A stretch of 64,000 bases of DNA from positions 4,526,001 through 4,590,000 of the forward strand of contig CP036296.1 of the NCBI GenBank assembly GCA_007751255.1, in the 5' to 3' direction. Below, piece by piece: positions 2 to 53,281 of this stretch. The DNA comes from Engelhardtia mirabilis. GTDB taxonomy: Bacteria; Planctomycetota; UBA1135; GCA-002686595. Numbering within the stretch: the first letter of the stretch is position 1; each line of letters starts with the position of its first letter. The notes under the pieces are model-generated. The model did not search any database. It saw only the letters and a program-made list of their open reading frames with translations, and was not told the DNA's origin. Both the position numbers and the translations under genes were made by a program.

Positions 2-2128
2 TCGAACAGCGTCGGCCTCTCGGTCGTCGACGACGGGCTGATCGGGGGCGCGGGGAGCTTCGAAGCGCGCTTCGACCCGAGCGGCGTGACCTTCGTGCCC
101 GTCCTCGGACAACAGGCCCCGGTCGAACAGACGCTCACCTTGTCGGCGACGTCACTGCGCCGGGTCGGCGCGTCCGTCGATCTGAAGCCGGTCGCGCCCC
201 GCGCCGAAGGCTTGGTGGCCAGCTACGACCGCGCCGAGGGTGTGGTCGAGCGCTTCGAAGTCACCGGCGAGGGTCTGTGGCACAGCGTCGTGCTCGACCG
301 GGCCCCGCTCGGCAGCGGCGACCTCGAGCTGCGGCTCACCATCGGTGGCGTGCTGCGCGACCGCGCCCTGGGCACCGCCGACGGGGGCCTCGAGTTCGAC
401 GCCGGCTTCGGCGGAGTCCGCTACGGCGCCCTGACTGGCGTCGACGCCCGCGGACGCACCGCGCCTGGGTCGGTCCGCGTCGAGGGCACGCAGTTGGTCC
501 TGCGCCTCGCGGCGGACTTCGTCGACTCGGCCAGCTACCCGATGGTGCTCGACCCACTGATCGGGACGCGCTTCCCCGTCGACAGCTCGACCTTCGACGA
601 CGCGGAGCCCGACGTGGCCTGGGACGCCTCCTGGGGCCGCTTCCTGGTGGTCTGGAAGCGCACCTTCTCAGCAATCAGCAGCGCCATCCGCGGTCAGGTC
701 CTGATCGGCGACGGGACCCTGGACGGCGGCACGGTCTTCTTCGGTAGCAGTGGTCAGGTGACCCGGCCCCAGGTCGCCAACGCCAACTATGCGAGCACCT
801 TCGTGGTGGTCTGGCGCCAAACGGCGTCGGGTGCCGACTCGATCCGCGCCCAGGCCTTCTCGCCGGGCGTGAGCGGGCTGACGGGCGTCGTCCCGATCGC
901 CATCGGAGCAGCCGGCAGCCTCTCGCGGCCGGATGTCGGCGGCGAGCTGCTCAAGGTCCCGTTCAAGCAGGCCCTGGTGATCTGGGATCGCAGCGGCGTC
1001 GGGATCGAGGGCGTCAAGTTGAACGTGGAGCTGGACAGCACGCCCACCGCGGTCTCGGCTTTCACGGTGGCGACCGAGGTCCCGCTGCTCAGCACGGTCG
1101 ACTCGCCGTCGATCACCCGCAACGCGGGCAACGTCGGGCTGTACGGCGTCACGTACCTGCGACGTGCTTCGCTGATCGGAGGGGTCTCCTCGGTCTTCGC
1201 CGCGGTGCTCGACCGCGACGGCACCGTGGTCAACCCGGGCCAGAAGATCACCAGCGCCCCCAGCCAGGAATACGAGCCCGAGATCGAAGGCGGCGGCGTG
1301 GCGGACTCGCGTTGGATCGTCGCCAGCTCCTACGAGCAGACGCCCGGCAGCGGCGACTACACGGTGCTGTTGACTCCCGTCGTGCCCGGTGCCACGACCC
1401 TCACGGCCTCGCCCTCGCAGGTCCTGACCCAGGTCGCCGGCGCTCCGCGCGTGGCCCTGGGTTGGCGTCCCGGCAAGACCTACGTCGCCTGGCGCGAGAA
1501 CGGGCTCTTCGCCGACGCCCTGCGGGTGACGGGCGTCGACGCGACGACCTGCCTGACCTGTGAGGCATCCCTGTTGGTCGAGGTCCTGTCGGCGGGCGAT
1601 CCCACCCTGGCCCTGTGCACCACGGCATCGGGTGGCAACTACGGCGAGGGCCGAGCGCTCTTGGTCTGGAACGAGGAGTCGGTCTCGCCCCTCAGCACCG
1701 ACCAGGATGTTCAAGGTCAGTTGCTCGACGCCTTCACCTCGACCTACTCGATCACCGACCTGGGCGGCGGCTGCGGCGCCGGCGGGACGGCGGTCACCCC
1801 GAATCCGGCCACGATCGGCAACGGCTACTTCCAAGTTCTGCTCCAGGGCGCGAGTCCGTTGGCGCCGGCCGCGATCTTGAACCTGAGCGTGACCACCGCC
1901 GTGCCGCTGGCCTGTGGCCCCTGTCTCTGGGTGCCCTTCGGCACGACCTTCGTCCAGCCGGTTCTCGGCGGTGGGGCCGGAATGGTCCTCGCGATCCCCT
2001 GCAACCCGGCTCTGGTTGCAGCCCAGCTCGACTTGCAGTGGACGGTGCTCACGCCCGGCAGCAGCCCCTGCGCCCTGAGCCCGGACGTGTCCGTGTCGAA
2101 CCGGATGCGACTCCTGCTGGGCTCCTGA
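2..2128 (+). CDS. Large secreted beta-rich protein, 5' end outside window
   Basis: The reading frame is open from base 2, so the gene begins before the window; a GTG at 86 is only an internal codon. About 708 residues are visible. I recognise no enzyme domain. The middle has repeated short blocks of the type VAWD..W.RFLVVW and FVVVWRQ followed by Q-A-F/L, the look of a beta-propeller-like extracellular protein. The last 120 residues, from about base 1775, are Gly/Pro/Cys-rich and carry a PALVAAQLDLQW segment resembling the C-terminal module of other secreted proteins in this window. The next gene lies about 190 bases downstream on the same strand. Function unknown; extracellular location is inferred from composition because the signal peptide lies outside the window. 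Confidence 0.8.
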   Translation, partial: SNSVGLSVVDDGLIGGAGSFEARFDPSGVTFVPVLGQQAPVEQTLTLSATSLRRVGASVDLKPVAPRAEGLVASYDRAEGVVERFEVTGEGLWHSVVLDRAPLGSGDLELRLTIGGVLRDRALGTADGGLEFDAGFGGVRYGALTGVDARGRTAPGSVRVEGTQLVLRLAADFVDSASYPMVLDPLIGTRFPVDSSTFDDAEPDVAWDASWGRFLVVWKRTFSAISSAIRGQVLIGDGTLDGGTVFFGSSGQVTRPQVANANYASTFVVVWRQTASGADSIRAQAFSPGVSGLTGVVPIAIGAAGSLSRPDVGGELLKVPFKQALVIWDRSGVGIEGVKLNVELDSTPTAVSAFTVATEVPLLSTVDSPSITRNAGNVGLYGVTYLRRASLIGGVSSVFAAVLDRDGTVVNPGQKITSAPSQEYEPEIEGGGVADSRWIVASSYEQTPGSGDYTVLLTPVVPGATTLTASPSQVLTQVAGAPRVALGWRPGKTYVAWRENGLFADALRVTGVDATTCLTCEASLLVEVLSAGDPTLALCTTASGGNYGEGRALLVWNEESVSPLSTDQDVQGQLLDAFTSTYSITDLGGGCGAGGTAVTPNPATIGNGYFQVLLQGASPLAPAAILNLSVTTAVPLACGPCLWVPFGTTFVQPVLGGGAGMVLAIPCNPALVAAQLDLQWTVLTPGSSPCALSPDVSVSNRMRLLLGS

Positions 2129-2318: not shown

Positions 2319-3809
2319 ATGTTCACCCACAAGATCCTGCTCGCCTCGACCCTCGCGTTCCTGTCCCCGGCCGCCCTCGCGGGCGACGGCGGCTTCGCCA
2401 CCGGCGACCTCTGGCTGCGGACGTCCGTGCAATCCGGCACGCCCTTCGGAGCCCTGGTCCGCGTCGACGCCTCGACCGGTGAGAGCGAGGTCGTGCTGCC
2501 CTTCACCAACTGGCACGGCAACAGCGAGGTCTACCAGACCCTGTGCTACGACCCGCGCCGGGACCGGATCCTGGTCTACGGCGTGCTCGACGTCGCCGGC
2601 ATCGCGAAGACGCGGGTCTGGGCCGTGGACGCCAAGGGTCAATACACCGAGACCAGCCTGGGCGGCAGCGCCCTCGCGCCGGCGTCGGACGGCAAGGTCT
2701 ATGCCGCGCTGACGGGCGTCGGCACGGCGCCCTTCATCAACTTCTACGACACCGCCGACGTGCAGCACCCACTGCTGAACGCGGCGGGGACGGGCCCCTT
2801 CGCCCCCGGCTTCACCCTGGGGTTCGGCCCGACCATCGCCAGCCTGATCTACGACCCTGGCACCCACTCCCTGTTGTGGGCCGTCGGCAACGCCGGCAGC
2901 CAGTGCGCGGGGCCCAGCGGCAGCGGCATGGGAGCCATCTACCGCCTCGACCTGTCGCCCGACGGGACTCGCGTCGTGTCGTCGAGCTGCACCACCTACG
3001 ACCTGGACGGCGCGAACCCCTTCACCGTCGGGGGCTACCCGATGGGCTTCGGGCGGCGCGCGGATGGCAAGTACGTTCTGACCCTGCGCGGCGGCGGCGC
3101 AGCGGGCACCAACGACGACCAGGCCGCGCGGATGGTGCTGGTCGATCCAGCGACGCTGTCGACGTCGACCTTCGCCTCCAACGGGCCCTACACCCAGGCG
3201 CTGTACACGAATGCCGGCACCTGGAGTCGCGTGCGCGGCGAGGCGGTGATCTTCGACCCGGCCGGCAATCAACTGCGGGCCTTCGCCCTGGGTGAGGTGG
3301 GCGGCGGGACGCTGCTGGCGAGCGGCGCGATCGGCAGCTCCTCGGACCCCTTCGGCTTCCCGATCGACTTCGAGCGCGCCGGTCTGATCGAGATTGCGCC
3401 GCTGGTCCTGAACGGGCACCTCAGCGCCGCGCCGACCACGGCCTCCATTGCCAGCGGTGGCCTGCAGTCCCTGAGCCTGGACTTCGGCGCGGCCTCGGCC
3501 GGGTCGATCTTTCTGGTCCTGGGTAGCGTCAGTGGCGCGGTCCCGCCGACGCCGATCGATGGCAAGCTACTGCCCCTCGCGATCGACTCCTACCTGCTGT
3601 TCAGCCTGAGCAACGCCAATTCGGCGGTCTTCGTGAACACCCTCGGAGTCCTCGACGGCGCCGGGAAGAAGACCGCGGCGATCTCCGTCCCCACCGGCCT
3701 GGGCCCGGCACTCGCCGGCCTGGTGCTGCACCACGCAGCCCTGACCCTCTCGCCGATCGGCGCGGTCACGGCCGTGAGCGACGCGGTCTCGCTGCGCCTG
3801 GTGCCGTGA
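2319..3809 (+). CDS. Secreted protein of unknown function with shared C-terminal module
   Basis: The protein has 496 residues. The frame opens earlier, at 2259, but ATG 2319 is preferred because it is followed at once by a typical signal peptide (MFTHKILLASTL then AALA before GDGG). The mature part has beta-propeller-like features such as repeated YDP..D.ILVYG and VYAALTG blocks, suggesting a repeat-built extracellular fold; no catalytic motif is recognised. The last 130 residues (from about base 3418) contain FLVLGSVSG, FVNTLGVLD and a GPALAGLVL segment. These match the tail of the DUF1028 protein at 6436-7950 (VLASLSG, FVNTLGSTD). It is convergent with the glyoxalase gene; the intervening space is filled by a tandem repeat. 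Confidence 0.8.
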   Translation: MFTHKILLASTLAFLSPAALAGDGGFATGDLWLRTSVQSGTPFGALVRVDASTGESEVVLPFTNWHGNSEVYQTLCYDPRRDRILVYGVLDVAGIAKTRVWAVDAKGQYTETSLGGSALAPASDGKVYAALTGVGTAPFINFYDTADVQHPLLNAAGTGPFAPGFTLGFGPTIASLIYDPGTHSLLWAVGNAGSQCAGPSGSGMGAIYRLDLSPDGTRVVSSSCTTYDLDGANPFTVGGYPMGFGRRADGKYVLTLRGGGAAGTNDDQAARMVLVDPATLSTSTFASNGPYTQALYTNAGTWSRVRGEAVIFDPAGNQLRAFALGEVGGGTLLASGAIGSSSDPFGFPIDFERAGLIEIAPLVLNGHLSAAPTTASIASGGLQSLSLDFGAASAGSIFLVLGSVSGAVPPTPIDGKLLPLAIDSYLLFSLSNANSAVFVNTLGVLDGAGKKTAAISVPTGLGPALAGLVLHHAALTLSPIGAVTAVSDAVSLRLVP

Positions 3810-6435: not shown

Positions 6436-7950
6436 TCAGGGTTCGATGTCGAAGCCGGCCGCAGCGGTGACCGACGGACCGGCGCCGAGCACCAGAGCGG
6501 CCAGGTCGATCCGCCCGCCGGCCACTGCGCCGAGGACGCCGGGCGGAATGGACAGGCCCGCCGCCGCGTGACCGAGGGCGTCAGTGCTGCCCAGGGTGTT
6601 CACGAAGGGCCCCTGGTTGGGCTGGACCAGGCTCAGGTCCACGAGCGGATCGGGATTGAGCGGCAGGGTCCCGAAGCCCAAGGGCACCCCGGGCGCGGTG
6701 CCGGAGAGACTGGCCAAGACCAGGTACACGGCGTTCGAATCGGTGTTCAGGGTCAGCGGCACCTGGGCGCCCTGGGCAGCCGACACGGCGTCGAAGCCAC
6801 AGTGCAGGTCCACCAAAGGATCGACCCGCAGCTCCAGGTAGGGGTACAGCAGCACCGGCCCCGAGCCATCGTCGGCGGTGATCGCCAGGGACTCGACGCC
6901 GGCGCTGGTGCCGGCCGTCAGGGCGAAGGTGTAGCTGCCGTCGCCGTTGTCGGTCACCGCTCCCACTTGGGTCAGGGTCGCGCCACCGCCGGCGCTGGCG
7001 ATGCCGAGCGCGGCGCCGCCGGAGCCCAGCGGCAGGCCGTCGAGGTCGACCAGCTGGACCGTCACCTGGGCCGACGAGGCTCCGTCGGCCACGAGCGACT
7101 GAACGTCCGCCTTGGCGCTGGAGAGCAGTTGGTCGGGCACCCCGGCCTGGGAGGCCCGCCAGGCGCCGTAGAGGCTCTGCAGGGTCAGGACCGGGTCGGG
7201 ATCGGGGATCGACCCGATCACGTTGAGGTTCAGGTGGTAGCTGCCGTTGGTGCAGCCCGCCTGACCACTGCAGGTGCCGTCGCTGTCGCCCATGCGCGCC
7301 ACCACCAGGAAGCCGATGTGGGCGGCCTTGGTGAAGCTCGGCGGCGGCGCTCCGCAGGAGGTGGGCTGCAGGATCGAGCACGAGCAGCGCCCATCGCCGC
7401 CGAGCGCGCGGGCGGCCTCCATGGCGGCCATGACCTTCTGGCTCGCGTCACCGGGAGTCGAGAGCAGCGCCGCGACCGCGTCGTCGATGACCTGGTCCGC
7501 GGTCAGCACGTTGCCCTGCACCGAGTAGATCCAGGGCAGGGACTTGCCCGCGAGCGCCTTCTTGGCCTTGCCCGCGCCGTTGCCGGTGAACTTGGCCGGG
7601 TTGTGGAGCACGTCGACGATCCCGTACTGCCGACTCTGGTGCTGGGGATCGCTCCCGGCGAGCAACTGCAGGATGTTGGCGGGCGGCACCTCGGCGATGA
7701 ACGAGTCCCAGATCAACTGGCGGTTGACGCCGCTCGAGTCGACCAGCGACTGGGCCGCGGCCGCGCCGTAACCCACACGCACCACGGGCAGGGCGACCTC
7801 GAGGTCGAAGTTCGCCAGGCAAGTGGCCGAGGCGATCACGACCTCGCGCGTCTCGATGTTGACCAGGATGATCGACCAGGTGGCCGAGGCTGGCGCGGCG
7901 AACAGAGTGGCGCTGGCGAGGAGCGCGGCGAGGGGGCGCGGTGTACGCAT
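6436..7950 (-). CDS. Secreted DUF1028 protein with Ig-like and shared C-terminal module
   Basis: This 504-residue exported protein starts at ATG 7950, where a signal peptide begins (MRTPRPLAALL...APASA). DUF1028 occupies about residues 24-265, starting at the family's TWSII block; the family is, as I recall, related to Ntn-hydrolase folds. Predicted cleavage after ASA would leave Thr24 as the new N-terminus, which would suit an Ntn-type nucleophile. Next comes an Ig-like invasin/Big_1-type domain (VQLVDLDG...DNGDGSYTF...) at about 285-360, then the C-terminal module shared with other secreted proteins here. The frame extends upstream to 8541 but only as a shadow over the next gene. Substrate unknown. 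Confidence 0.85.
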   Translation of the reverse strand: MRTPRPLAALLASATLFAAPASATWSIILVNIETREVVIASATCLANFDLEVALPVVRVGYGAAAAQSLVDSSGVNRQLIWDSFIAEVPPANILQLLAGSDPQHQSRQYGIVDVLHNPAKFTGNGAGKAKKALAGKSLPWIYSVQGNVLTADQVIDDAVAALLSTPGDASQKVMAAMEAARALGGDGRCSCSILQPTSCGAPPPSFTKAAHIGFLVVARMGDSDGTCSGQAGCTNGSYHLNLNVIGSIPDPDPVLTLQSLYGAWRASQAGVPDQLLSSAKADVQSLVADGASSAQVTVQLVDLDGLPLGSGGAALGIASAGGGATLTQVGAVTDNGDGSYTFALTAGTSAGVESLAITADDGSGPVLLYPYLELRVDPLVDLHCGFDAVSAAQGAQVPLTLNTDSNAVYLVLASLSGTAPGVPLGFGTLPLNPDPLVDLSLVQPNQGPFVNTLGSTDALGHAAAGLSIPPGVLGAVAGGRIDLAALVLGAGPSVTAAAGFDIEP

Positions 7951-23324: not shown

Positions 23325-25622
23325 ATGAAGCAAGCCCCCCGCCTCGCCGCCCTCGCCGCCATCTTCGTTGCCACAGCAACCCCGGGGCACGCAACCCAGC
23401 ACAAGCACCGTTTTGCGGACGTCTACGAGACCGGCGGCTTCCGGGTCGCGGGCCGGGCCCTGGAGGGTACGGCACCGTTCGAGCGGGTCGAGCGCAGGCG
23501 CGTGGACGCCGGCGCGCCGGCCCTGCTCGTCTTCGCGCCGCGCACCGTGCGCGAGCTGGTCCGCATGGACGCCCAGGCCCTCTTGTACGAGTGGCTGCCC
23601 CAGGGCGAGCGCGCCTGGCTCGAAGAGCTGCGGGTCGTGGCGGACGGCCATGTGATCGACGCCCGCGAGCTATCGGGCGCGATGGTCGGCGACCCGCGCT
23701 TCGGCCACGTGAACGCCGACCTGGAGCGTCTGCCGGAGACCCTCTCGCACCTGCACCGCCACGGGCGCCAGTTCGCCTCGCCCCTGGCGCCGACGCTCGA
23801 GGGCGACGCGGCCCTGCTCATGGCCGAGTCCATCGGCGAGCGCGTGAACGACCTCGTCGCCGACCTGCGCGCGACGCCCGACCAGCCCTACGGCCGGGTG
23901 GACTTCAGCCTCGACCTGGACCAGATCTTCGCGGGCACGGACCCCGCCGGCAGCCTGCGGCCGGTGACGATCGAGGTCGACTACCGCCTGTCCGACGGAC
24001 GCCTGGCCACGGCCTGGCGCACCTTCGAGCTGCGCTGGCTCGGCGAGCGCCCGGGCGTCGGCTCCGGTCCCCTCCCGATCGCCGGTGCCAACTTCGAGGT
24101 GCACCGCGGCGACCTGCACGTGCACTCCTGCCACGGCGAGGCCGTGGGAGCCTGCGCGCCCAGCTCCAACTGCGCCGCCGAGACCCTGCAGGTCTCGGGC
24201 TCGTTCAGCTTCGCCCAGCTCAAGACCCAGTACCAAGCCCTCGGGGTCGACTTCTTCACCTCGACCGATCACAGCTACTGCATCGACGACAACGCCGAGT
24301 TCGCCGTGATCGAGGGCGAGCTGGCGGCGATCACCGACGCCGGCTTCATCGCGATCATGGACACCGAGCTGTCCAGCGACGAGGTCGGACCCCAGACCGG
24401 CAGCAACAGCGGTGACCTGACCTGCCTGGGCCTGTCCCAGCACAACCACATGGGCGCCCACGGCATCGACACCCGCAAGGCCGGCGGCGGCAGCGGGCTC
24501 TTGGGCTGGTGCGACGGGCTCTTCTCCGACGCCCTCGACTCGTTCACGAACAACATCGCCAAGGTACGCGCCGAGGGCGGCTACCCGGTCGTCAACCACG
24601 GCACCGCGGACTTCTTCGGCTGGCAGAGCTTCCAGGCCACCACCGGCATCGAGGCCGGCGGCATGCACGGCTGCGAGATCTGGAACGGCGAGTTCGTCTC
24701 CGGCCAGGGCGGCGACGTGGGCCAGTGGGTCGACTGGCTGCTCGGGGGTCGCATCCTCTACGGCTACGGAGGCAGCGACACCCACGACGCGGCCTTCGAC
24801 TTCGGCGTCAACCACGTGCTGGTGCCGCCGGGTGGCTTCTCGACCGCCGGCCTCGAGGCCGCCCTGAAGGCTGGCCGCGTGTTCGTCTCCAACGACGCGA
24901 CCCTGATCCTCGAAGCGCGCCTGGGCACCCTCGAGCTGCCCATGGGCACCCTGCAGTCCTTCGACCCGGGCACCGTCGCGCCGAACCAGGTGACCCTCGA
25001 GGTGACCTACGACTTCGGCGCCAAGCCCAGCCAGATCACGATCTTCACCGGCCGCGTGGGCGACGCGGACGAGACCGTGGCCTGCCAGAGCGCGACACTT
25101 TCCGGCGCGGGCAGCTTCGAGTGCACCGTGCCCCTGGAGCTCGGCGCCCGTTCCTGGTTCCGCGCCTACTCCCAGAGCTCCGCCGGCACCGAGGCCGCCT
25201 ACACCAACCCGGTCTTCTTCCTGCCCAGCTCCTGCGCATGGGCCCCCTACGGCCTGGCCCTGGGCGGCGCCAACGTGGGCAGCCTGTCGAGCGCCACCGG
25301 CCCCAGCGTCGGCTCGATCCAGCGTCTGGAGTTCGCCGGGCTCGGCACCTCGCCCGCGGCCGTGGTCGCCGGCGGCCTGCCCCTCGCTGCCCCGGGCCTG
25401 CCCTTCGCCGGCGGCTCGCTCCTGCTGCAGCTCCCCGCCCCGATCCTGACCACCGCACCCATGGCCGGCGGCGCCGGCGTCTTCGACGTCGAGCTGCCCC
25501 TGATCCCCGCCCTGGTCGGCGCGACTCTCGCCTGGCAAGCGGCGGCGGTGGACGGCACCCAACCGGGCGGGCTGGCCTTCACCAACGGCATCAGCGCGAG
25601 CCTCTGCGCGGTGGGCGGCTGA
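23325..25622 (+). CDS. Secreted PHP-domain metal-dependent hydrolase with shared C-terminal module
   Basis: The protein has 765 residues. A signal peptide (about 1-24, MKQAPRLAALAAIF...GHA) leads to a 200-residue beta-rich N-terminal part. A PHP phosphoesterase domain follows, with metal-binding motifs GDLHVHSCHG (about 262-271), FTSTDHS (about 312), an internal NHGT and GYGGSDTHD (about 481). PHP proteins bind two or three metals and cleave phosphoesters; an exported one likely acts on extracellular phosphorylated or sugar substrates. The last 130 residues carry LLLQLPAP and PALVGATLAWQ, related to the tail module of the first gene in the window. It is divergent from the acyl-CoA ligase with 106 bases between. 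Confidence 0.85.
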   Translation: MKQAPRLAALAAIFVATATPGHATQHKHRFADVYETGGFRVAGRALEGTAPFERVERRRVDAGAPALLVFAPRTVRELVRMDAQALLYEWLPQGERAWLEELRVVADGHVIDARELSGAMVGDPRFGHVNADLERLPETLSHLHRHGRQFASPLAPTLEGDAALLMAESIGERVNDLVADLRATPDQPYGRVDFSLDLDQIFAGTDPAGSLRPVTIEVDYRLSDGRLATAWRTFELRWLGERPGVGSGPLPIAGANFEVHRGDLHVHSCHGEAVGACAPSSNCAAETLQVSGSFSFAQLKTQYQALGVDFFTSTDHSYCIDDNAEFAVIEGELAAITDAGFIAIMDTELSSDEVGPQTGSNSGDLTCLGLSQHNHMGAHGIDTRKAGGGSGLLGWCDGLFSDALDSFTNNIAKVRAEGGYPVVNHGTADFFGWQSFQATTGIEAGGMHGCEIWNGEFVSGQGGDVGQWVDWLLGGRILYGYGGSDTHDAAFDFGVNHVLVPPGGFSTAGLEAALKAGRVFVSNDATLILEARLGTLELPMGTLQSFDPGTVAPNQVTLEVTYDFGAKPSQITIFTGRVGDADETVACQSATLSGAGSFECTVPLELGARSWFRAYSQSSAGTEAAYTNPVFFLPSSCAWAPYGLALGGANVGSLSSATGPSVGSIQRLEFAGLGTSPAAVVAGGLPLAAPGLPFAGGSLLLQLPAPILTTAPMAGGAGVFDVELPLIPALVGATLAWQAAAVDGTQPGGLAFTNGISASLCAVGG

Positions 25623-30621: not shown

Positions 30622-32781
30622 TCAGTCGCCGATCGAGAGATCGACGCCCCCCGCCAGGACGATGTCCAGAGCCGACGGATCCACGAAGACCCCCTGGCTG
30701 TAGAGCTTCGCGCCGAGCAGCGCCGCGTCCATCGGGATCGGCACGTCGATCAGCGCGGGTGCGCCGGGGCCGCCCCAGACGGCGGGGCCGAGCAGGATCG
30801 GGGTGCTCGCCGAGTCGATCAGGATCTCGCCGCTCTGGCTGCCGGGGCCGAAGTCCGGCAGCAGGGTGCCGCAGGGGAAGCCGGGGGCGGGCTGCAGTGA
30901 GACGGCCAGGACCGCCAGGCTGCCGGGCATCAGACCCGCCTGGTTCGCCGGGTCGTCGAGGCGCACCGACATGGGGTGGCCGATCTGAGGCGCCGGCGAG
31001 ATCGCCAGGCTCTGGGCGGGAGCGGTCCCGCTGCACGGGTCGCGCGGAAGGGCCAGGGCCAGGAACGGCTCCGGCGTCAGGTGCGCCCGCATGCCGCCCG
31101 GGCTCAGGCCGTTCATTCGGCCGACGCCCCACATCTCGCAGTCCCCCACCTCGTTCAGCCCGCGCATCTGCACGTTGGGCGTGCTCTCGAAGTCCATCAC
31201 CTGGGTCCACTGGCTGCCGTCCCAGCGGTAGACGCCCTGCTCGCCGTAGGTGCCCGAGCTCGAGACGAGGTCGCCGCTGGCGCGGTGGACCAGGGTGCTG
31301 CCCCCGCCGGGAGACGCGTATTGGGTCCAGGATGATCCGTCCCAGTGCACGAACAGCGGCACGCGCACGGCCAAGAGGCCCTGGATCTCGGTGTAGAAGC
31401 CGCTGGCCCACACGTCGTCGCTGGCGATGGCCTCGACCGCGTAGATCTGCTGGTCGATGCCGGGGGTCGGCCCGGGCACGTGCTCCCAGGTCGAGCCGTC
31501 CCAGTGCGCCAGGTAGGAGTAGGGCGTGAAGTCGCCGTCGTGGGCACCGCCACCGGCCCAGATGTCGTCGCTCGCGATCGCGGAGGCGGCGATCAGCGAG
31601 TGACCCCCGCCGTAGCCGATCTTGTTGTCGAAGAAGGGCGTGTCGACCACCGTGAAGTCACTGCCGTCCCAGTGCATGGCGAGGGAGCGCTGCTCGCCCA
31701 GGGCACTGGCCTGGAAGCCGAGCCACTCGCCGAAGAACCAGATGTCGTCCGGCGCGACGACCTCGATGTCGTTCACGTGGGGACCGCTGCCACCGGAGGT
31801 CTGGGGCGCGGGGACGACCTCCCAGCTCGTGCCGTCGAAGTGCAGCACGAGGATCTGCGAGCCGACGAATCCGTCGGGGCTGACCACGCGGGCGCTGCCG
31901 GCCGCCCACACGTCGTCGGACGCGACGACTGCCACCGCATTGAGGGTCGAATAGCCGCCTCCGGGATACGGCTCGGGGTGCGGCAGGTCGGCGACGGTCC
32001 AGGTCGTGCCGTCGAAGTGCTCGGCGTAGACATAGGTCTCGCTGACGATGGGGAAGTCGAACTCGAAGCGCCAGCCGACGGCCCACACGTCGTCGGGCCC
32101 GGTGCCCTCGACGTCGGTGAACATCACACCCGACTGAATCGCCGGTTGCGGCACGATGTCCCAGTCACCGCAGGGATCCGACCCGGCCTGGAGCGGCGTG
32201 TCGTCGAGCCCGTAGAGCTCGAAGGCGAGGTCCGCGTCGAGGTCGTAGGTGTAGCTGCTCTGGTAGGGAACCCACGGGCCGCCGGGCTCGTGGCGGACCA
32301 CGAAGGGGTTGTCGTTGGGCTGGCCAAAGTTCGAGATCGACCAGTCCCAGATGCCCGTCACGTCGACCTGCACCGAGAGGTAGGCGCGGTCGGTGGAGAC
32401 GAAGGGGGGATCCAGGGTCATGTCGATCAGCGTCGGGCCCTTCAGCACGACGAGGTCCGGGTCGCCGTCGACGAAGGTCTCTTCACGCAGCAGTGCGCCG
32501 GGCCCCTGGGGCGTCCAGGCATAGAGGCGCAGCGTCGCCGCGTGGAAGGTCCCCGGGGCGCACGGCAGGCAGCCGCTTCCGAACGCCCGCACGCGGTGCA
32601 CGTCCCCCACCACGTGGAAGTCGTCCGCGGCCTCGAGGAAGTCGGGAGCGACGACCGAGGGCACGGTGGCCCAGTAGTGGACCTGCTGCTGCAGGAGCAG
32701 TTCGAGCGGGCCGGTCTGGGCGAGCGCGAGCGGGGCCGCGAGCGCCGTGGCGCCGAGGGCGGGGAGGAGGGATCGAAGCAT
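30622..32781 (-). CDS. Large secreted repeat protein with shared C-terminal module
   Basis: The protein has 719 residues from ATG 32781, which opens a signal peptide (MLRSLLPALGATALAAPLALA). The centre has at least six repeats of the pattern ..AIASDDVWA.G.....(L/V)HWDGSSW..V, i.e. SDDVWA/HFDGTTW blocks, the signature of a bacterial beta-propeller whose blades each carry DDVWAVG. The last 135 residues (VRLDDPANQAG...AALLGAKLYSQG...) form the C-terminal module seen on other secreted proteins here. It is probably extracellular; ligand unknown. A truncated, decayed copy of its central part lies at 25674-26150. Confidence 0.85.
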   Translation of the reverse strand: MLRSLLPALGATALAAPLALAQTGPLELLLQQQVHYWATVPSVVAPDFLEAADDFHVVGDVHRVRAFGSGCLPCAPGTFHAATLRLYAWTPQGPGALLREETFVDGDPDLVVLKGPTLIDMTLDPPFVSTDRAYLSVQVDVTGIWDWSISNFGQPNDNPFVVRHEPGGPWVPYQSSYTYDLDADLAFELYGLDDTPLQAGSDPCGDWDIVPQPAIQSGVMFTDVEGTGPDDVWAVGWRFEFDFPIVSETYVYAEHFDGTTWTVADLPHPEPYPGGGYSTLNAVAVVASDDVWAAGSARVVSPDGFVGSQILVLHFDGTSWEVVPAPQTSGGSGPHVNDIEVVAPDDIWFFGEWLGFQASALGEQRSLAMHWDGSDFTVVDTPFFDNKIGYGGGHSLIAASAIASDDIWAGGGAHDGDFTPYSYLAHWDGSTWEHVPGPTPGIDQQIYAVEAIASDDVWASGFYTEIQGLLAVRVPLFVHWDGSSWTQYASPGGGSTLVHRASGDLVSSSGTYGEQGVYRWDGSQWTQVMDFESTPNVQMRGLNEVGDCEMWGVGRMNGLSPGGMRAHLTPEPFLALALPRDPCSGTAPAQSLAISPAPQIGHPMSVRLDDPANQAGLMPGSLAVLAVSLQPAPGFPCGTLLPDFGPGSQSGEILIDSASTPILLGPAVWGGPGAPALIDVPIPMDAALLGAKLYSQGVFVDPSALDIVLAGGVDLSIGD

Positions 32782-43265: not shown

Positions 43266-44000
43266 GGCGCTGCTCCTCTCGGTGATGAACTTCAGCCCCC
43301 GGGTGCTCTTCTGCAGGTTGCCGCCGATCCGCTCACCACCAAAGGCCAGGGCGCTGATCGACGCCGCGCTCGGCAGGCCGGGCCCAATCTGCACCCTGCC
43401 CCCCCGGCCAAGTGGGCCACCACGTCCGACTCCGCGAGGCTGCGGCCGCCCAACTTCATGGCCGCCAGCCCGAGCACGGCCCAGGGCGCTGCGAGGGTCG
43501 CGTCGAGTGTCGGCAAACCACTCGTCCCGGCCGGCCCGGTAACGAATGCGGTCCTGGAGGCCGGTCCGTAGACGGCCGTGTGATTCGCCTCCGCCGAGCA
43601 CTCGAGGTCGCCGTGCTCGTCCATACCGTGGCCGTGCTCCGCGACTGTGGCGACCACGTTGGCCGGCTGCGGGCCGCGCTCGCTGCGTGACGTGGGTCTG
43701 CGTTCAGTTGGCCGAGGCGGAGTCCTCGTCGGTTTCTGCGACATCCGACGAGGAGGGTCACCTGGAGTGGACCGAACCAGGGTCGGATGCCCGCACCGGT
43801 CGCTCCCGTACAGCTTGTCGTCCGCCGAGAGGCCGGCCACGTGAAGGCCCAGGTCACCGTCGTGGTCATTGTCGGGCGAGCCCGCGTCGTCTGGGCAGCC
43901 GAAGGCAAGTGCGCGGCGACGCTCGAGCCCTCCTCCGTGGATCCCGACCCCGAAGCCTGCACGTTGTTCGTAGTGTCATCACCGATCCCTGTGCCGTCCG
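43266..44000 (-). pseudogene. Decayed FG-GAP repeat gene (third family copy)
   Basis: The minus strand retains clear remnants of the genes at 48549-50648 and 51176-53281, but spread over different frames. They are DHDGDLGLHVAGLSADDKLYGSD and TLVRSTPG, then GPASRTAFVTGPAGTSGLPTLDATLA, then VQIGPGLPSAASIS and IGGNLQKSTRGLKFITE near 43276-43400. The original stop is lost (ITQ-stop has become ITERSS). Similarity fades upstream of about 44000, although a PPGYVST stretch at about 44240 may belong to the same relic. Frameshifts and internal deletions rule out a working gene. It follows the TPR gene exactly as the intact FG-GAP gene follows the second TPR copy. Confidence 0.8.
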
Positions 44001-48548: not shown

Positions 48549-50648
48549 CTACTGCGTGATGACCTCGAGTCCCTGGGTGCTCGAGAGCAGGTTCCCGCCG
48601 ATCCCGTCGAGCCCGAAGCCCTGAGCGTAGACCGAAACGCCGGTCGGCAGGCCGGACCCGATCGGGATCTCGACCGCCGCCTGGCCGGCGGCATTGGCCG
48701 TGCCGTCGAAGTCCGCGAGCACGTTCCCGCCCACGTTCAGGGTCGCCAGCCCGGGCAGGGGCAGGGGCGACGCCAGGGCCGCGTCGGTCACGAACAGCAG
48801 CCAGCCAGAACTCGGGCTCAGGCCGTCGAGGGTCAGGAAGAGCGAGCTGTCGCTGGTCGCCGTGGATGCCGCGTCGAGGGTCGGCACTCCGCTGGCCCCG
48901 GCTACGCCGGCACCGAAGCTGGCCTTGAAAGCCGGACCGAAGGTGGCCACGTAGGTCTGGTCCGCCGAGGTCCCCAGGTTGCCGTACTCGTCCGAGGAGT
49001 GGATGCGGTATGCCACGTTGCCTACCAGGTTCGACGGCAGAAGGCCGCGGAAGATCTGGCCCTGTGAGCTCATCATCGGGCGGCTGGTCAGCGTCACGCC
49101 GTCGACGTCGAACTCGATCGAAGTCGGGTTGTACCAGGTGATGTAGTAGGGCGCGTTGTCGTAGACCTGAGCGCGCACGGGGAAAGTGCCGGGCGCCGCG
49201 GTGCGATCGCCCAAGTTCTCCACGTGCGGAATGTAGGGAGCGTGGGTGTCGGGCACCTGGGTGCCGTTGATCAGCGTGCGGTTGGCCGAGAAGGAGTCCT
49301 CCGCCACGATCAGGTCGTAGTCGCCATCCTTGTCGATGTCCGCGGCGTCTGCGTCGAGCGACGAAGCGCCGCCCGGCGTCGACTGGACCAGGGTCATGAA
49401 GCCGTTCCCGTCGTTGGAATAGAGCTTGTCGTTGCCCGAGAAGTTGGCGACGAACAGGTCCAGATCGCCGTCGTTGTCGAAGTCGAGGAAGTCGCCCTCG
49501 TTGTCGTCGGCGTTCGAGCCCTGCAGGTTGGTCTCCAGGTTCGCGAACAGCCCCGAGCCGTTGTTGCGGAAGGTCTTGTCGCTGAAGCCGTTCCAGTTCA
49601 GGCCGTAGATGTCGAGATCACCGTCGCCGTCGAGGTCCCCCATCTCCTGCTCGTAGTTGCCGCCACCCGTGGCCCAGTTGTTCGGGAAGGCGCGACCGGT
49701 GATGTCGCGGAACCCCAACACGCCGCCGTTCTCCTCGAGGCGGTTCTCGAACAGGCGCGGCTCCTCTTGGCGCGCGCCGTGGAGGATGTCGAGATCGAAG
49801 TCACCGTCGATGTCGCCCACGTCGATGTCGAGGGCAGTGCTGGCCACGTCCGCGAACTGCCCCAGGAAGTTGATGGTGTTCGCCTGCTGGGTGCCCTGGG
49901 CCCAGATGGCCGGGTTGCCATTCGAGATGAGGTTGCCGGTCAACTGGAAACCGCTCGGGTTGAACTCCTTGAAATGGCCGCCGCCATCGTTGAGGAAGAT
50001 CCGCGTCGGAACCTGCCCGCCGAACGCTCCTCCGTAGGAGGAGTGCACCAGATCGAGGTCGCCGTCGTTGTCCAGGTCACCGAAGTCGCAGTCGCAGGAC
50101 CAGTCGATGAAGGTGCCGCCGCTCAGCAGTGCGGTCGCGATCGACGACCCGTTGACGCCCAGATCGATCCAGCGGGACGAAGTCTCGTCGGTGTAGAAGC
50201 CGAGCGTCCCGCCCTGCTCTCCACCGTTGTTGACCCACCACTTGTTGCCCTGATTCGAGAGCTGTGCGGTGTTGGAGACGTAGATGTCCAGGTCTCCGTC
50301 GTTGTCGATGTCCGCGAACTCGATGTCGCGGCTGTCGTCCGACTCGGCGGGCAGGCGTGCGCCGGTCTCGTCCGAGAAGGTCCCGATGGTCCCGGCCTGG
50401 AGGCCGCCCTTGTTGATCCAGATGCGGTTCTGGTCGTTCCCGTTGTCACCCCCGTCGGCGAAGATCGCGTCCCAGTCACCGTCCTGGTCGACGTCGCCGA
50501 AGTCGACGTTCTCGGTCGAGGACGCGATCCCCGGCCCCGTCGGATTGCCTGAGTTGTCGGAGGTGAGTTGAGCGCTGGCGTCGGAACCGAGGGTCAGCCA
50601 AGCGGCGGCGCTGGCGGCGGTCCAGGCGAGGATCGGTGAGTTCTTCAT
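48549..50648 (-). CDS. Secreted FG-GAP/VCBS repeat protein, paralogue A
   Basis: The protein has 699 residues from ATG 50648. A signal peptide (MKNSPILAWTAASAAAWLTLGSDASA) is followed by about eight FG-GAP/VCBS blades with calcium-binding DxDxDG loops (GDVDQDGDWDAIF, ADIDNDGDLDIY, CDFGDLDNDGDLDLVH, GDIDGDFDLDILH, GDLDGDGDLDIYG, DFDNDGDLDLF, ADIDKDGDYDLIV). An Ig-like beta domain follows (about 505-595, containing RAQVYDNAPYYITWYNPTS), then the shared C-terminal module with VSVYAQGFG. It is about 75 percent similar by eye to the neighbour at 51176-53281. Extracellular adhesion or ligand binding is inferred; no catalytic motif is seen. Confidence 0.87.
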   Translation of the reverse strand: MKNSPILAWTAASAAAWLTLGSDASAQLTSDNSGNPTGPGIASSTENVDFGDVDQDGDWDAIFADGGDNGNDQNRIWINKGGLQAGTIGTFSDETGARLPAESDDSRDIEFADIDNDGDLDIYVSNTAQLSNQGNKWWVNNGGEQGGTLGFYTDETSSRWIDLGVNGSSIATALLSGGTFIDWSCDCDFGDLDNDGDLDLVHSSYGGAFGGQVPTRIFLNDGGGHFKEFNPSGFQLTGNLISNGNPAIWAQGTQQANTINFLGQFADVASTALDIDVGDIDGDFDLDILHGARQEEPRLFENRLEENGGVLGFRDITGRAFPNNWATGGGNYEQEMGDLDGDGDLDIYGLNWNGFSDKTFRNNGSGLFANLETNLQGSNADDNEGDFLDFDNDGDLDLFVANFSGNDKLYSNDGNGFMTLVQSTPGGASSLDADAADIDKDGDYDLIVAEDSFSANRTLINGTQVPDTHAPYIPHVENLGDRTAAPGTFPVRAQVYDNAPYYITWYNPTSIEFDVDGVTLTSRPMMSSQGQIFRGLLPSNLVGNVAYRIHSSDEYGNLGTSADQTYVATFGPAFKASFGAGVAGASGVPTLDAASTATSDSSLFLTLDGLSPSSGWLLFVTDAALASPLPLPGLATLNVGGNVLADFDGTANAAGQAAVEIPIGSGLPTGVSVYAQGFGLDGIGGNLLSSTQGLEVITQ

Positions 50649-51175: not shown

Positions 51176-53281
51176 TCACTGCGTGATGATCTCGAGGCCG
51201 TTCGACGTCGAGACGATGTTACCGCCGGTGCCGTCGGTGCCGAAGGCCTGCGAGAAGACCGAGATGCCGGCCGGCACCGTGGGGCCGACGGGGATCTTGA
51301 CCACGACTTCGTTGCCCGCAGCGGCCGAGCCGGAGAAGAGCGCGAGAACCGAACCGGTGACGTTGAGGTTACCGATGCCGGGCAGGAACAGCGGGCTCGC
51401 CAGCTTGGCGTCGGTCAGGTACAGGAAGTAGCTGGCGCCGGCCGTGATGTTGGTGGCGGTCAGGTACAGGTCCGAGCCAGCGAAGGCGACGGACGCCGCG
51501 TTGAGGCTCGGGACACCGCTGGTGCCGGCGGTGCCGGCGCCGAAGGCGCCGCCGATGCCGAGACCGGTCGAACCGACGTAGCTCTCGTCAGCCGAGGTGC
51601 CGGTGTTGCCGTACTCGTCCGAGGAGCGGACGCGGTAGGTGACGTTGCCGACGAGGTTCTCGGGGAGCAGACCACGGAAGATCTGACCCTGCGAGCTCAT
51701 CATCGAGCGGCTCTCGAGGGTGACGCCGTTGACGTCGAACTCGATGAAGGTCGGGTTGTACCAGGTGATGTAGTACGGGGCGTTGTCGTAGACCTGGGCG
51801 CGGACCGAGAACTCGCCGGCGGCCGCGGTGCGGTTGCCGTCGTTCTCGACGCGGGGGATGTACGACGGGGTGGTGTCCGCCACGTTGGTCGTGTTGATCA
51901 GCGTGGTGTTGGGACGGTTGTTGTCCTCGGCGACGATCAGGTCGTAGTCGCCGTCCTTGTCGATGTCAGCCGCGTCGGCGTCCAGGGACGCAGCGCCGCT
52001 GGCGGAGGTCCCGGTCTGCTGGGCCAGGGTCATCGTGCCCGTGCCGTTGTTGTTGTAGAGCTTGTCGAGGCCGGAGAAGTTGGCCACGAACAGGTCGAGG
52101 TCGCCGTCGTTGTCGTAGTCGACGAAGTCGCCTTCGTTGTCGTCGGCGCCCGAGTTCGGGAGGCTGCTCTGGAGGATGGTGAAGACGCCGCTGCCGTTGT
52201 TGCGGAAGGTGCGGTCGTTGAAGCCGTTCCAGTTGAGGCCGTAGACGTCGAGGTCGCCGTCCCCGTCCATGTCGCCCATTTCCTGCTCGTAGTTGTCCCC
52301 GGTGCTGACGTAGCCAGCGGGGAACACGGCGGAGGTGACGTCGCGGAAGGCGAGGCTGCCGGTCTCCTCGAGGCGGTTCAGGAACATCCGGGGATCTTCC
52401 TGACGGGCGCCGTGGAGGAGGTCGAGGTCGAAGTCGCCGTCGATGTCACCGAGGTCGATGTCGAGCGCGGAGCTGGCGATGTCGGCCTGGGCGCCGGTGC
52501 TGTTGTTGGTGTTGGACTGCTGCGTGCCCTCGGCCCAGATGGCCGGGTTGCCGTTGGAGATCAGGTTGCCGGCGAGCTGGAAGCCGCTCGGGTTGAACTC
52601 CTTGAAGTGGCCGTCGCCGTCGTTGAGGAAGATTCGGGTCGGGACCTGCCCGCCGAACGCTCCGCCGTAGGACGAGTGCACGAGGTCGAGGTCACCGTCG
52701 TTGTCGAGGTCACCGAAGTCGCAGTCGCAGGACCAGTCGATGAAGGTGCCCGCGCCGACGAGGGCGGGGGAGATCGACGAGCCGTTGGTGCCGAGGTCGA
52801 CCCAGCGCGCGGCCGTCTCGTCGGCGAAGAAGCCGAGCGTGCCGCCCTGCTTGCCACCGTTGTTGACCCACCAGTGGTTGCCCTGGTTGGCGAGCTGAGC
52901 CGTGTTCGAGATGTAGAGGTCGATGTCCCCGTCGTTGTCGATGTCCGCGAACTCGATGTCGCGGCTGTCGTCCGACTGGTTCGGGAAGCGGGTCGAGGTC
53001 TGGTCCAGGAAGGTTCCGGGCGAACCGCTCTGGAGGCCGCCGCGGTTGATCCAGATGCGGTTCTGGTCGTTGCCGCCGTCGCCGCCGTCGGCGAAGACCG
53101 CGTCCCAGTCGCCGTCCTGGTCGACGTCGCCGAAGTCCACGTTCTCGGAGCTGGAAGCGATTCCGGCGCCGGTCGGGTTGCCCGAGTTGTTGATGGTGTA
53201 CTGGGCGCTGGCAGTGGCGCCGAGCGCCATCCACAGGGCAGCGCTGGCAGCCGTGCAGGCGAGGGTTTGCTTGCGATTCAT
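51176..53281 (-). CDS. Secreted FG-GAP/VCBS repeat protein, paralogue B
   Basis: The protein has 701 residues from ATG 53281, chosen because it opens the signal peptide (MNRKQTLACTAASAALWMALGATASA). Architecture is the same as paralogue A: about eight FG-GAP blades with DxDxDG loops including a WSCDCDFGDLDNDGDLDL block, then the Ig-like domain (RAQVYDNAPYYITWYNPTF), then the shared C-terminal module ending GISVFSQAFG...GLEIITQ. The two cysteines of WSCDCD are conserved in both. It is followed by a strong hairpin terminator. It is probably extracellular; A and B likely arose by tandem duplication. Confidence 0.88.
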   Translation of the reverse strand: MNRKQTLACTAASAALWMALGATASAQYTINNSGNPTGAGIASSSENVDFGDVDQDGDWDAVFADGGDGGNDQNRIWINRGGLQSGSPGTFLDQTSTRFPNQSDDSRDIEFADIDNDGDIDLYISNTAQLANQGNHWWVNNGGKQGGTLGFFADETAARWVDLGTNGSSISPALVGAGTFIDWSCDCDFGDLDNDGDLDLVHSSYGGAFGGQVPTRIFLNDGDGHFKEFNPSGFQLAGNLISNGNPAIWAEGTQQSNTNNSTGAQADIASSALDIDLGDIDGDFDLDLLHGARQEDPRMFLNRLEETGSLAFRDVTSAVFPAGYVSTGDNYEQEMGDMDGDGDLDVYGLNWNGFNDRTFRNNGSGVFTILQSSLPNSGADDNEGDFVDYDNDGDLDLFVANFSGLDKLYNNNGTGTMTLAQQTGTSASGAASLDADAADIDKDGDYDLIVAEDNNRPNTTLINTTNVADTTPSYIPRVENDGNRTAAAGEFSVRAQVYDNAPYYITWYNPTFIEFDVNGVTLESRSMMSSQGQIFRGLLPENLVGNVTYRVRSSDEYGNTGTSADESYVGSTGLGIGGAFGAGTAGTSGVPSLNAASVAFAGSDLYLTATNITAGASYFLYLTDAKLASPLFLPGIGNLNVTGSVLALFSGSAAAGNEVVVKIPVGPTVPAGISVFSQAFGTDGTGGNIVSTSNGLEIITQ

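What the first reader, a model, noticed from the sequence alone, without database searches (positions are those of the whole stretch)
51179..51540. A shared C-terminal module on at least seven unrelated secreted proteins
The last 110-130 residues of seven exported proteins here look alike although their bodies differ completely. They are at about 1775-2128, 3418-3806, 6439-6800, 25225-25619, 30625-31020, 48552-48925 and 51179-51540. Shared marks are a run of strands, then P..L.G..(L/V)...(A/S)Q....D and a final S..(G/A)L stretch, e.g. LLGAKLYSQG, TGVSVYAQGFG and AGISVFSQAFG. Some pairs are closer (3418-3806 with 6439-6800 share FVNTLG). A remnant persists in the pseudogene at 43266-44000. A common tail on a propeller, a PHP hydrolase, a DUF1028 protein and FG-GAP proteins is what a sorting, secretion or cell-surface attachment domain looks like. 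That it is undescribed is my guess.
Basis: partly seen in the sequence, partly recalled or inferred. Interest (0 to 1): 0.72.

Follow-up and report, generated by a model that had tools for sequence, protein, structure and literature searches.

The report
Shared end module on exported proteins
A planctomycete bacterium carries the same roughly 120-residue end piece on more than two hundred mostly unrelated, mostly exported proteins, usually at the tail but sometimes at the head, and it looks like an undescribed docking or surface-anchoring module.

Summary
The tails are real, and the seven are a small sample. A profile built only from other genomes finds five of seven (E 6e-15 to 3e-7; best decoy 0.45). 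The other two (3390-3806, 6439-6852) form a second branch, type B, related to type A by profile comparison (hhalign probability 93-95%, E 3e-7 to 4e-8). The genome holds at least 134 type-A and 81 type-B places, 215 in all. No Pfam or NCBIfam model covers them.

Type A is C-terminal in 116 of 134; in 15 it sits just behind the signal peptide, with no second module in those proteins. This argues against an obligatory C-terminal sorting signal of the T9SS or PEP-CTERM kind and fits a position-tolerant docking or anchoring module.

Type A occurs in 59 and type B in 54 of 294 planctomycete genomes, the 54 inside the 59. Two low-confidence models suggest an immunoglobulin-like beta-sandwich. One glutamine is nearly invariant in type A. 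The partner is unknown; no call tests the mechanism directly.

The parts
1769..2125 (+). type-A module at the C-terminus of ORF 2-2128 (cut by the window start)
   Evidence: E 2.2e-8 by the other-genome profile
3390..3806 (+). type-B module at the C-terminus of ORF 2319-3809
   Evidence: weak or absent with type-A profiles
6439..6852 (-). type-B module at the C-terminus of the DUF1028 protein 6436-7950
   Evidence: not found by type-A profiles
25248..25619 (+). type-A module at the C-terminus of the CehA/McbA-like metallohydrolase 23325-25622
   Evidence: E 5.7e-15
30625..31032 (-). type-A module at the C-terminus of ORF 30622-32781 (propeller-like body, weak)
   Evidence: E 2.2e-11
48552..48920 (-). 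type-A module at the C-terminus of FG-GAP protein 48549-50648
   Evidence: E 2.9e-7
51179..51547 (-). type-A module at the C-terminus of FG-GAP protein 51176-53281
   Evidence: E 2.8e-9
43278..43975 (-). pieces of a broken FG-GAP gene of the same kind, with the last 39-40 residues of the module still readable

Best explanation
It is a mobile terminal docking (anchoring) module of exported proteins. The protein crosses the inner membrane by its N-terminal signal peptide. The module folds as a compact, charge-poor beta-sandwich at one end of the chain and binds one common partner in the outer envelope or the extracellular matrix, so that very different enzymes, propellers and FG-GAP proteins are delivered to, or held at, the same place. 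Shown by calls: homology, end placement, one copy per protein with one exception, diverse bodies, a near-invariant glutamine in type A, low charge, and co-occurrence of types A and B. Inferred: the fold (two weak models), the common partner, and the anchoring itself.
For: End placement: 116 of 134 type-A modules C-terminal, 15 directly behind the signal peptide, 3 others; 29 of 30 inspected type-B modules (of 81) C-terminal; 52 of 53 in 34 other genomes (rows picked from the best matches). A profile of 163 rows, 162 of them C-terminal modules, recognises all 18 non-C-terminal ones (iE 1e-21 to 4e-8), and only 1 of 166 ORFs has two modules. Signal-peptide-like start in 105 of 136 module ORFs against 42 of 132 control ORFs. 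Diverse bodies: 113 bodies scanned, 45 and 30 Pfam families in the two batches. 39 pairs of similar bodies with type A on one and type B on the other. Glutamine kept in 129 of 133 modules here and 53 of 53 elsewhere. K+R 1.6% (A) and 1.2% (B) against 4.4-5.5% in bodies. Type B occurs only where type A does (54 inside 59 of 294 genomes).
Against: No partner or location is known. 31 of 136 module ORFs fail the crude signal-peptide rule. Co-occurrence of A and B can follow from common ancestry alone. The 87% C-terminal share is also what a C-terminal signal with exceptions would give. The models are weak (pLDDT 56.5 and 58.5). One module is inserted mid-protein and one lies behind another domain.
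Confidence: 0.5

Rival explanations
1. An outer-membrane secretion signal that works like the type IX C-terminal domain: a folded beta-sandwich recognised by an unknown planctomycete translocon, perhaps removed afterwards. The N-terminal copies are exceptions or have lost the function.
For: 116 of 134 type-A and 29 of 30 inspected type-B modules are C-terminal, 52 of 53 in other genomes end 0-5 residues from the end; extracellular enzyme bodies, among them a C25 peptidase; the weak models resemble immunoglobulin-like sandwiches, the fold class of type IX domains (PMC11285876, passages).
Against: 15 copies directly behind the signal peptide and no C-terminal copy in those proteins. No match to any Pfam or NCBIfam model. 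Lysine in the last 15 residues in only 6 of 116, 8 of 52 and 1 of 29 modules. SprA 0 of 294 genomes, though no control rang.
Confidence: 0.25
2. A glycan-binding module that holds exported proteins to the cell's own polysaccharide or to substrate particles.
For: Single copy at either end of diverse exported enzymes; beta-sandwich (weak models).
Against: Few charged residues; no carbohydrate-binding family matched; also on proteins whose bodies do not look like polysaccharide enzymes.
Confidence: 0.15
3. An inert stabilising cap: a common beta-sandwich that closes the ends of extracellular proteins and has no partner.
For: Low identity between modules (mean column identity 24% in A3); immunoglobulin-like domains are widespread.
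Against: Ordinary accessory domains occur in tandem and mid-protein; here 1 of 166 ORFs has two modules. One glutamine stays in 129 of 133 modules. Type B is found only in genomes that have type A.
Confidence: 0.1

Closest known systems
Type IX secretion system C-terminal domain (Bacteroidota)
   Same: A folded module, mostly at the C-terminus of many unrelated signal-peptide proteins; possibly the same broad fold class (Ig-like sandwich; weak models here).
   Different: No match to any Pfam or NCBIfam model; 15 of 134 copies N-terminal; no conserved lysine in the last strand; no SprA found (no control rang).
PEP-CTERM, MYXO-CTERM and similar sorting tags (names as in the listings; features partly recalled)
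   Same: Many proteins of one genome share one C-terminal label.
   Different: Those are short tags with a membrane helix and a basic end; this is a 110-130 residue domain: hydrophobic helix-like window in 3 of 118, two or more K/R in the last 7 in 7 of 118, PEP in 1 of 118.
Wall- or glycan-binding modules of exported enzymes (general class, recalled)
   Same: Single module at either end of diverse exported proteins.
   Different: No Pfam or NCBIfam family matches; partner unknown.

Membership tests
Type IX secretion C-terminal domain | matches a curated model of that domain (Pfam, NCBIfam) | tested here: not met
   27 type-A modules: one stray match each (DUF5351 0.028; TIGR00975 0.019) and no other; 5 more none at E <= 1; 29 type-B none at 0.01
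Type IX secretion C-terminal domain | always the last domain of the cargo | tested here: not met
   18 of 134 type-A modules are not C-terminal, 15 of them behind the signal peptide
Type IX secretion C-terminal domain | conserved lysine in the last strand (PMC11285876, passages) | tested here: not met
   any lysine in the last 15 residues: 6 of 116, 8 of 52, 1 of 29
Type IX secretion C-terminal domain | genome encodes the SprA translocon | tested here: inconclusive
   TIGR04189 0 of 1 and 0 of 294 genomes, but it rang in none of 14 control genomes
Type IX secretion C-terminal domain | immunoglobulin-like 3+4 sandwich | tested here: inconclusive
Type IX secretion C-terminal domain | removed by a PorU-like peptidase | not testable with these tools
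   needs protein data
PEP-CTERM-like tags | short motif, membrane helix and basic end at the C-terminus | tested here: not met
   of 118 C-terminal modules: helix-like window 3, two or more K/R in the last 7 residues 7, PEP in the last 40 residues 1
Any solved-structure family | sequence match to a PDB chain | tested here: not met
   type A none at E <= 1; type B two chance-level rows, E 0.48 and 0.79

The most novel reading that the evidence does not exclude
A subset of Planctomycetota has its own, undescribed system for delivering or anchoring exported proteins. Its address label is a folded module in two versions (A and B) that works from either end of the chain, is carried by more than two hundred proteins in one genome, and is read by a partner not yet identified.
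Probability: 0.4. Interest if true: 0.85.

Novelty: new variant of a known kind. Interest (0 to 1): 0.7.

Why it matters
At least 215 places in one 6.9 Mb genome bear the module, and the 113 bodies scanned span dozens of Pfam families. A shared label of this abundance, found in about a fifth of the sampled planctomycete genomes, marks where to look for an unknown secretion or surface-display route in a phylum with unusual cell envelopes. The near-invariant glutamine and the natural N-terminal copies make the question testable with simple fusions.

Tried and rejected
A seven-sequence alignment of the tails was too poor to judge homology; larger families were needed. A 22-row profile missed three of seven tails.

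Two of the 136 places (583150, 3405076) are type B by score and are counted as B. Two others (1712177, 1712393) are short pieces, probably of one broken copy.

A first signal-peptide rule (83 of 136, no control) was too strict for starts without K/R; the looser rule with controls is the one used.

The tree of 133 modules needs 11 changes between N- and C-terminal places (shuffled mean 14.4; 1 of 500 shuffles as low), but well-supported branches force only 1, so several separate moves are likely, not shown.

Papers: six word searches aimed at the module and one for genus names, listings only, showed no description; passages of PMC11032199 and PMC11285876 were seen.

Full report
What was claimed.

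Where we are. The window lies at 4,526,001-4,590,000 of contig C1 of a 6.95 Mb genome. The second contig is 100% identical over 3,488 bases to plasmid pPla133_1 of Planctomycetes bacterium Pla133 (taxid 2528011, Engelhardtia mirabilis), with coordinates shifted by 30 bases. So the genome is most likely that species, that strain or a sister strain. The window is about 70% G+C.

Is the similarity real? Yes. Single tails as queries gave 14 and 18 matches in the own genome. A profile of 27 tails (A2) gave 136 places at E <= 0.01, with only 150 of 251 candidates scored, so this is a lower bound. The strongest test uses no sequence of this genome: a profile of 53 modules from 34 other planctomycete genomes finds five of the seven window tails at E 5.7e-15 to 2.9e-7 among 563 six-frame ORFs, against a best decoy of 0.45. 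The remaining two, 3390-3806 and 6439-6852, are 37% identical and together pull out 81 places (150 of 154 candidates scored): type B. Type-A profiles do not find them securely: one of 110 rows found the first at 3e-4, the combined one of 163 rows did not, and the second was found by none. But the type-B family and type A align by profile comparison (probability 93.2, 93.3 and 95.0%; E 2.9e-7, 2.7e-7 and 3.6e-8 for one comparison; 97, 99 and 52 columns). Two places are in both lists and belong to type B, which leaves 134 type A plus 81 type B, 215 places. Two of the 134 are probably pieces of one broken copy. At least one more type-A module, behind the interior type-B module of L263, was missed and found later.

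Where in the protein? Of the 136 places, 118 end within 19 residues of the C-terminus and 18 do not; without the two type-B places it is 116 of 134. I fetched the 18 whole. In 15 the module begins 14 to 56 residues after the putative start, just behind the signal peptide, and is followed by 135 to 747 residues of other sequence. One lies behind another N-terminal domain, one is inserted mid-protein, one is in an ORF without a clear start. A profile of 163 rows, 162 of them C-terminal modules, recognises all 18 (iE 1e-21 to 4e-8) and finds no second module in them. Of 30 type-B modules inspected out of 81, 29 are C-terminal; the other is followed by a second body that itself ends in a type-A module, the only one of 166 ORFs with two. 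In 34 other genomes 52 of 53 modules end 0-5 residues from the C-terminus; I picked those 53 from the best matches, which likely favours the usual arrangement.

What carries it? By a crude rule 105 of 136 module ORFs have a signal-peptide-like start, against 42 of 132 control ORFs from the same stretches. I scanned 113 of 118 C-terminal bodies; five had under 60 residues between called start and module. The batches of 56 and 57 matched 45 and 30 Pfam families at E <= 1e-4, the first 25 of each shown: FG-GAP, Kelch and other propellers, trypsin-like, M12, M14, C25, S8 and S9 peptidases, esterases, Endonuclease I, MauG, plastocyanin, Laminin G, PKD. In 39 pairs of similar bodies one protein carries type A and the other type B (40 listed; one is the same protein twice), so the two types look interchangeable; many of these bodies are repeat proteins, for which body similarity comes easily.

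Spread. At E <= 1e-5 type A is in 59 and type B in 54 of 294 planctomycete genomes (own genome included). Every type-B genome also has type A, and the five type-A-only genomes have one or two matches each. The listed genomes of the same family (9) and order (12) all have both. Many genomes reach the limit of 14-15 scored matches, so copy numbers there are lower bounds. The pattern fits one system, but shared ancestry alone would also give it. Other phyla were not searched with a profile.

Known families. No Pfam or NCBIfam family matches beyond single stray rows (27, 5 and 29 modules), and no PDB chain matches by sequence beyond chance. Compared with the type IX C-terminal domain the module fails on model match, on obligatory C-terminal place and on the conserved lysine of the last strand (PMC11285876, passages). 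The SprA search is negative in 294 genomes, but no control rang. It lacks the helix and basic end of PEP-CTERM-like tags. It may still work like either in the broad sense of an address label.

Mechanism. One copy, at an end, at either end, on many unrelated mostly exported bodies, two interchangeable versions and a fixed glutamine: this is what a docking or anchoring domain with a common partner should look like. A C-terminal secretion signal with rare exceptions is the main rival. A glycan-binding module and a passive cap are less likely but not excluded. No partner was found, and location was not measured.

Limits. Counts rest on profile searches with capped scoring. ORFs are stop-to-stop with inferred starts. 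The tree cannot say how often the module moved between ends. The absence of a description in print rests on six word searches of an open library, listings only.

Noticed in passing
window 43278-43975 (-), 48549-50648 (-), 51176-53281 (-): Two FG-GAP paralogues and a broken third copy lie on one strand; the two intact bodies are 77% identical but their modules 53%.
   Followed up: partly
G000 contig C2 15962-16357 (-); L272: The plasmid of this genome also carries a type-B protein, annotated only as hypothetical (QDU70150.1) in pPla133_1.
   Followed up: partly
L103 (G000:C1:2332134-2345136): Five tandem paralogues in a row each end in a type-A module; bodies 52-71% and modules 67-97% identical.
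   Followed up: no
L263 (G000:C1:604643-605026 and downstream): One protein holds an interior type-B module followed by a second body that ends in a type-A module, like two module proteins fused.
   Followed up: no
L168 (G000:C1:6843605-6848668): A type-A module is inserted mid-protein, between a propeller-like and a cytochrome-peroxidase-like part (domains read by eye).
   Followed up: no
G000:C1:1712177-1712548 (L094): Two short type-A pieces in separate 80-residue frames, probably one broken copy.
   Followed up: no
G108, G180, G244, G275, G291: Five genomes have only one or two type-A matches and no type B, perhaps single acquired genes or chance; they could help to find a partner gene.
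   Followed up: no
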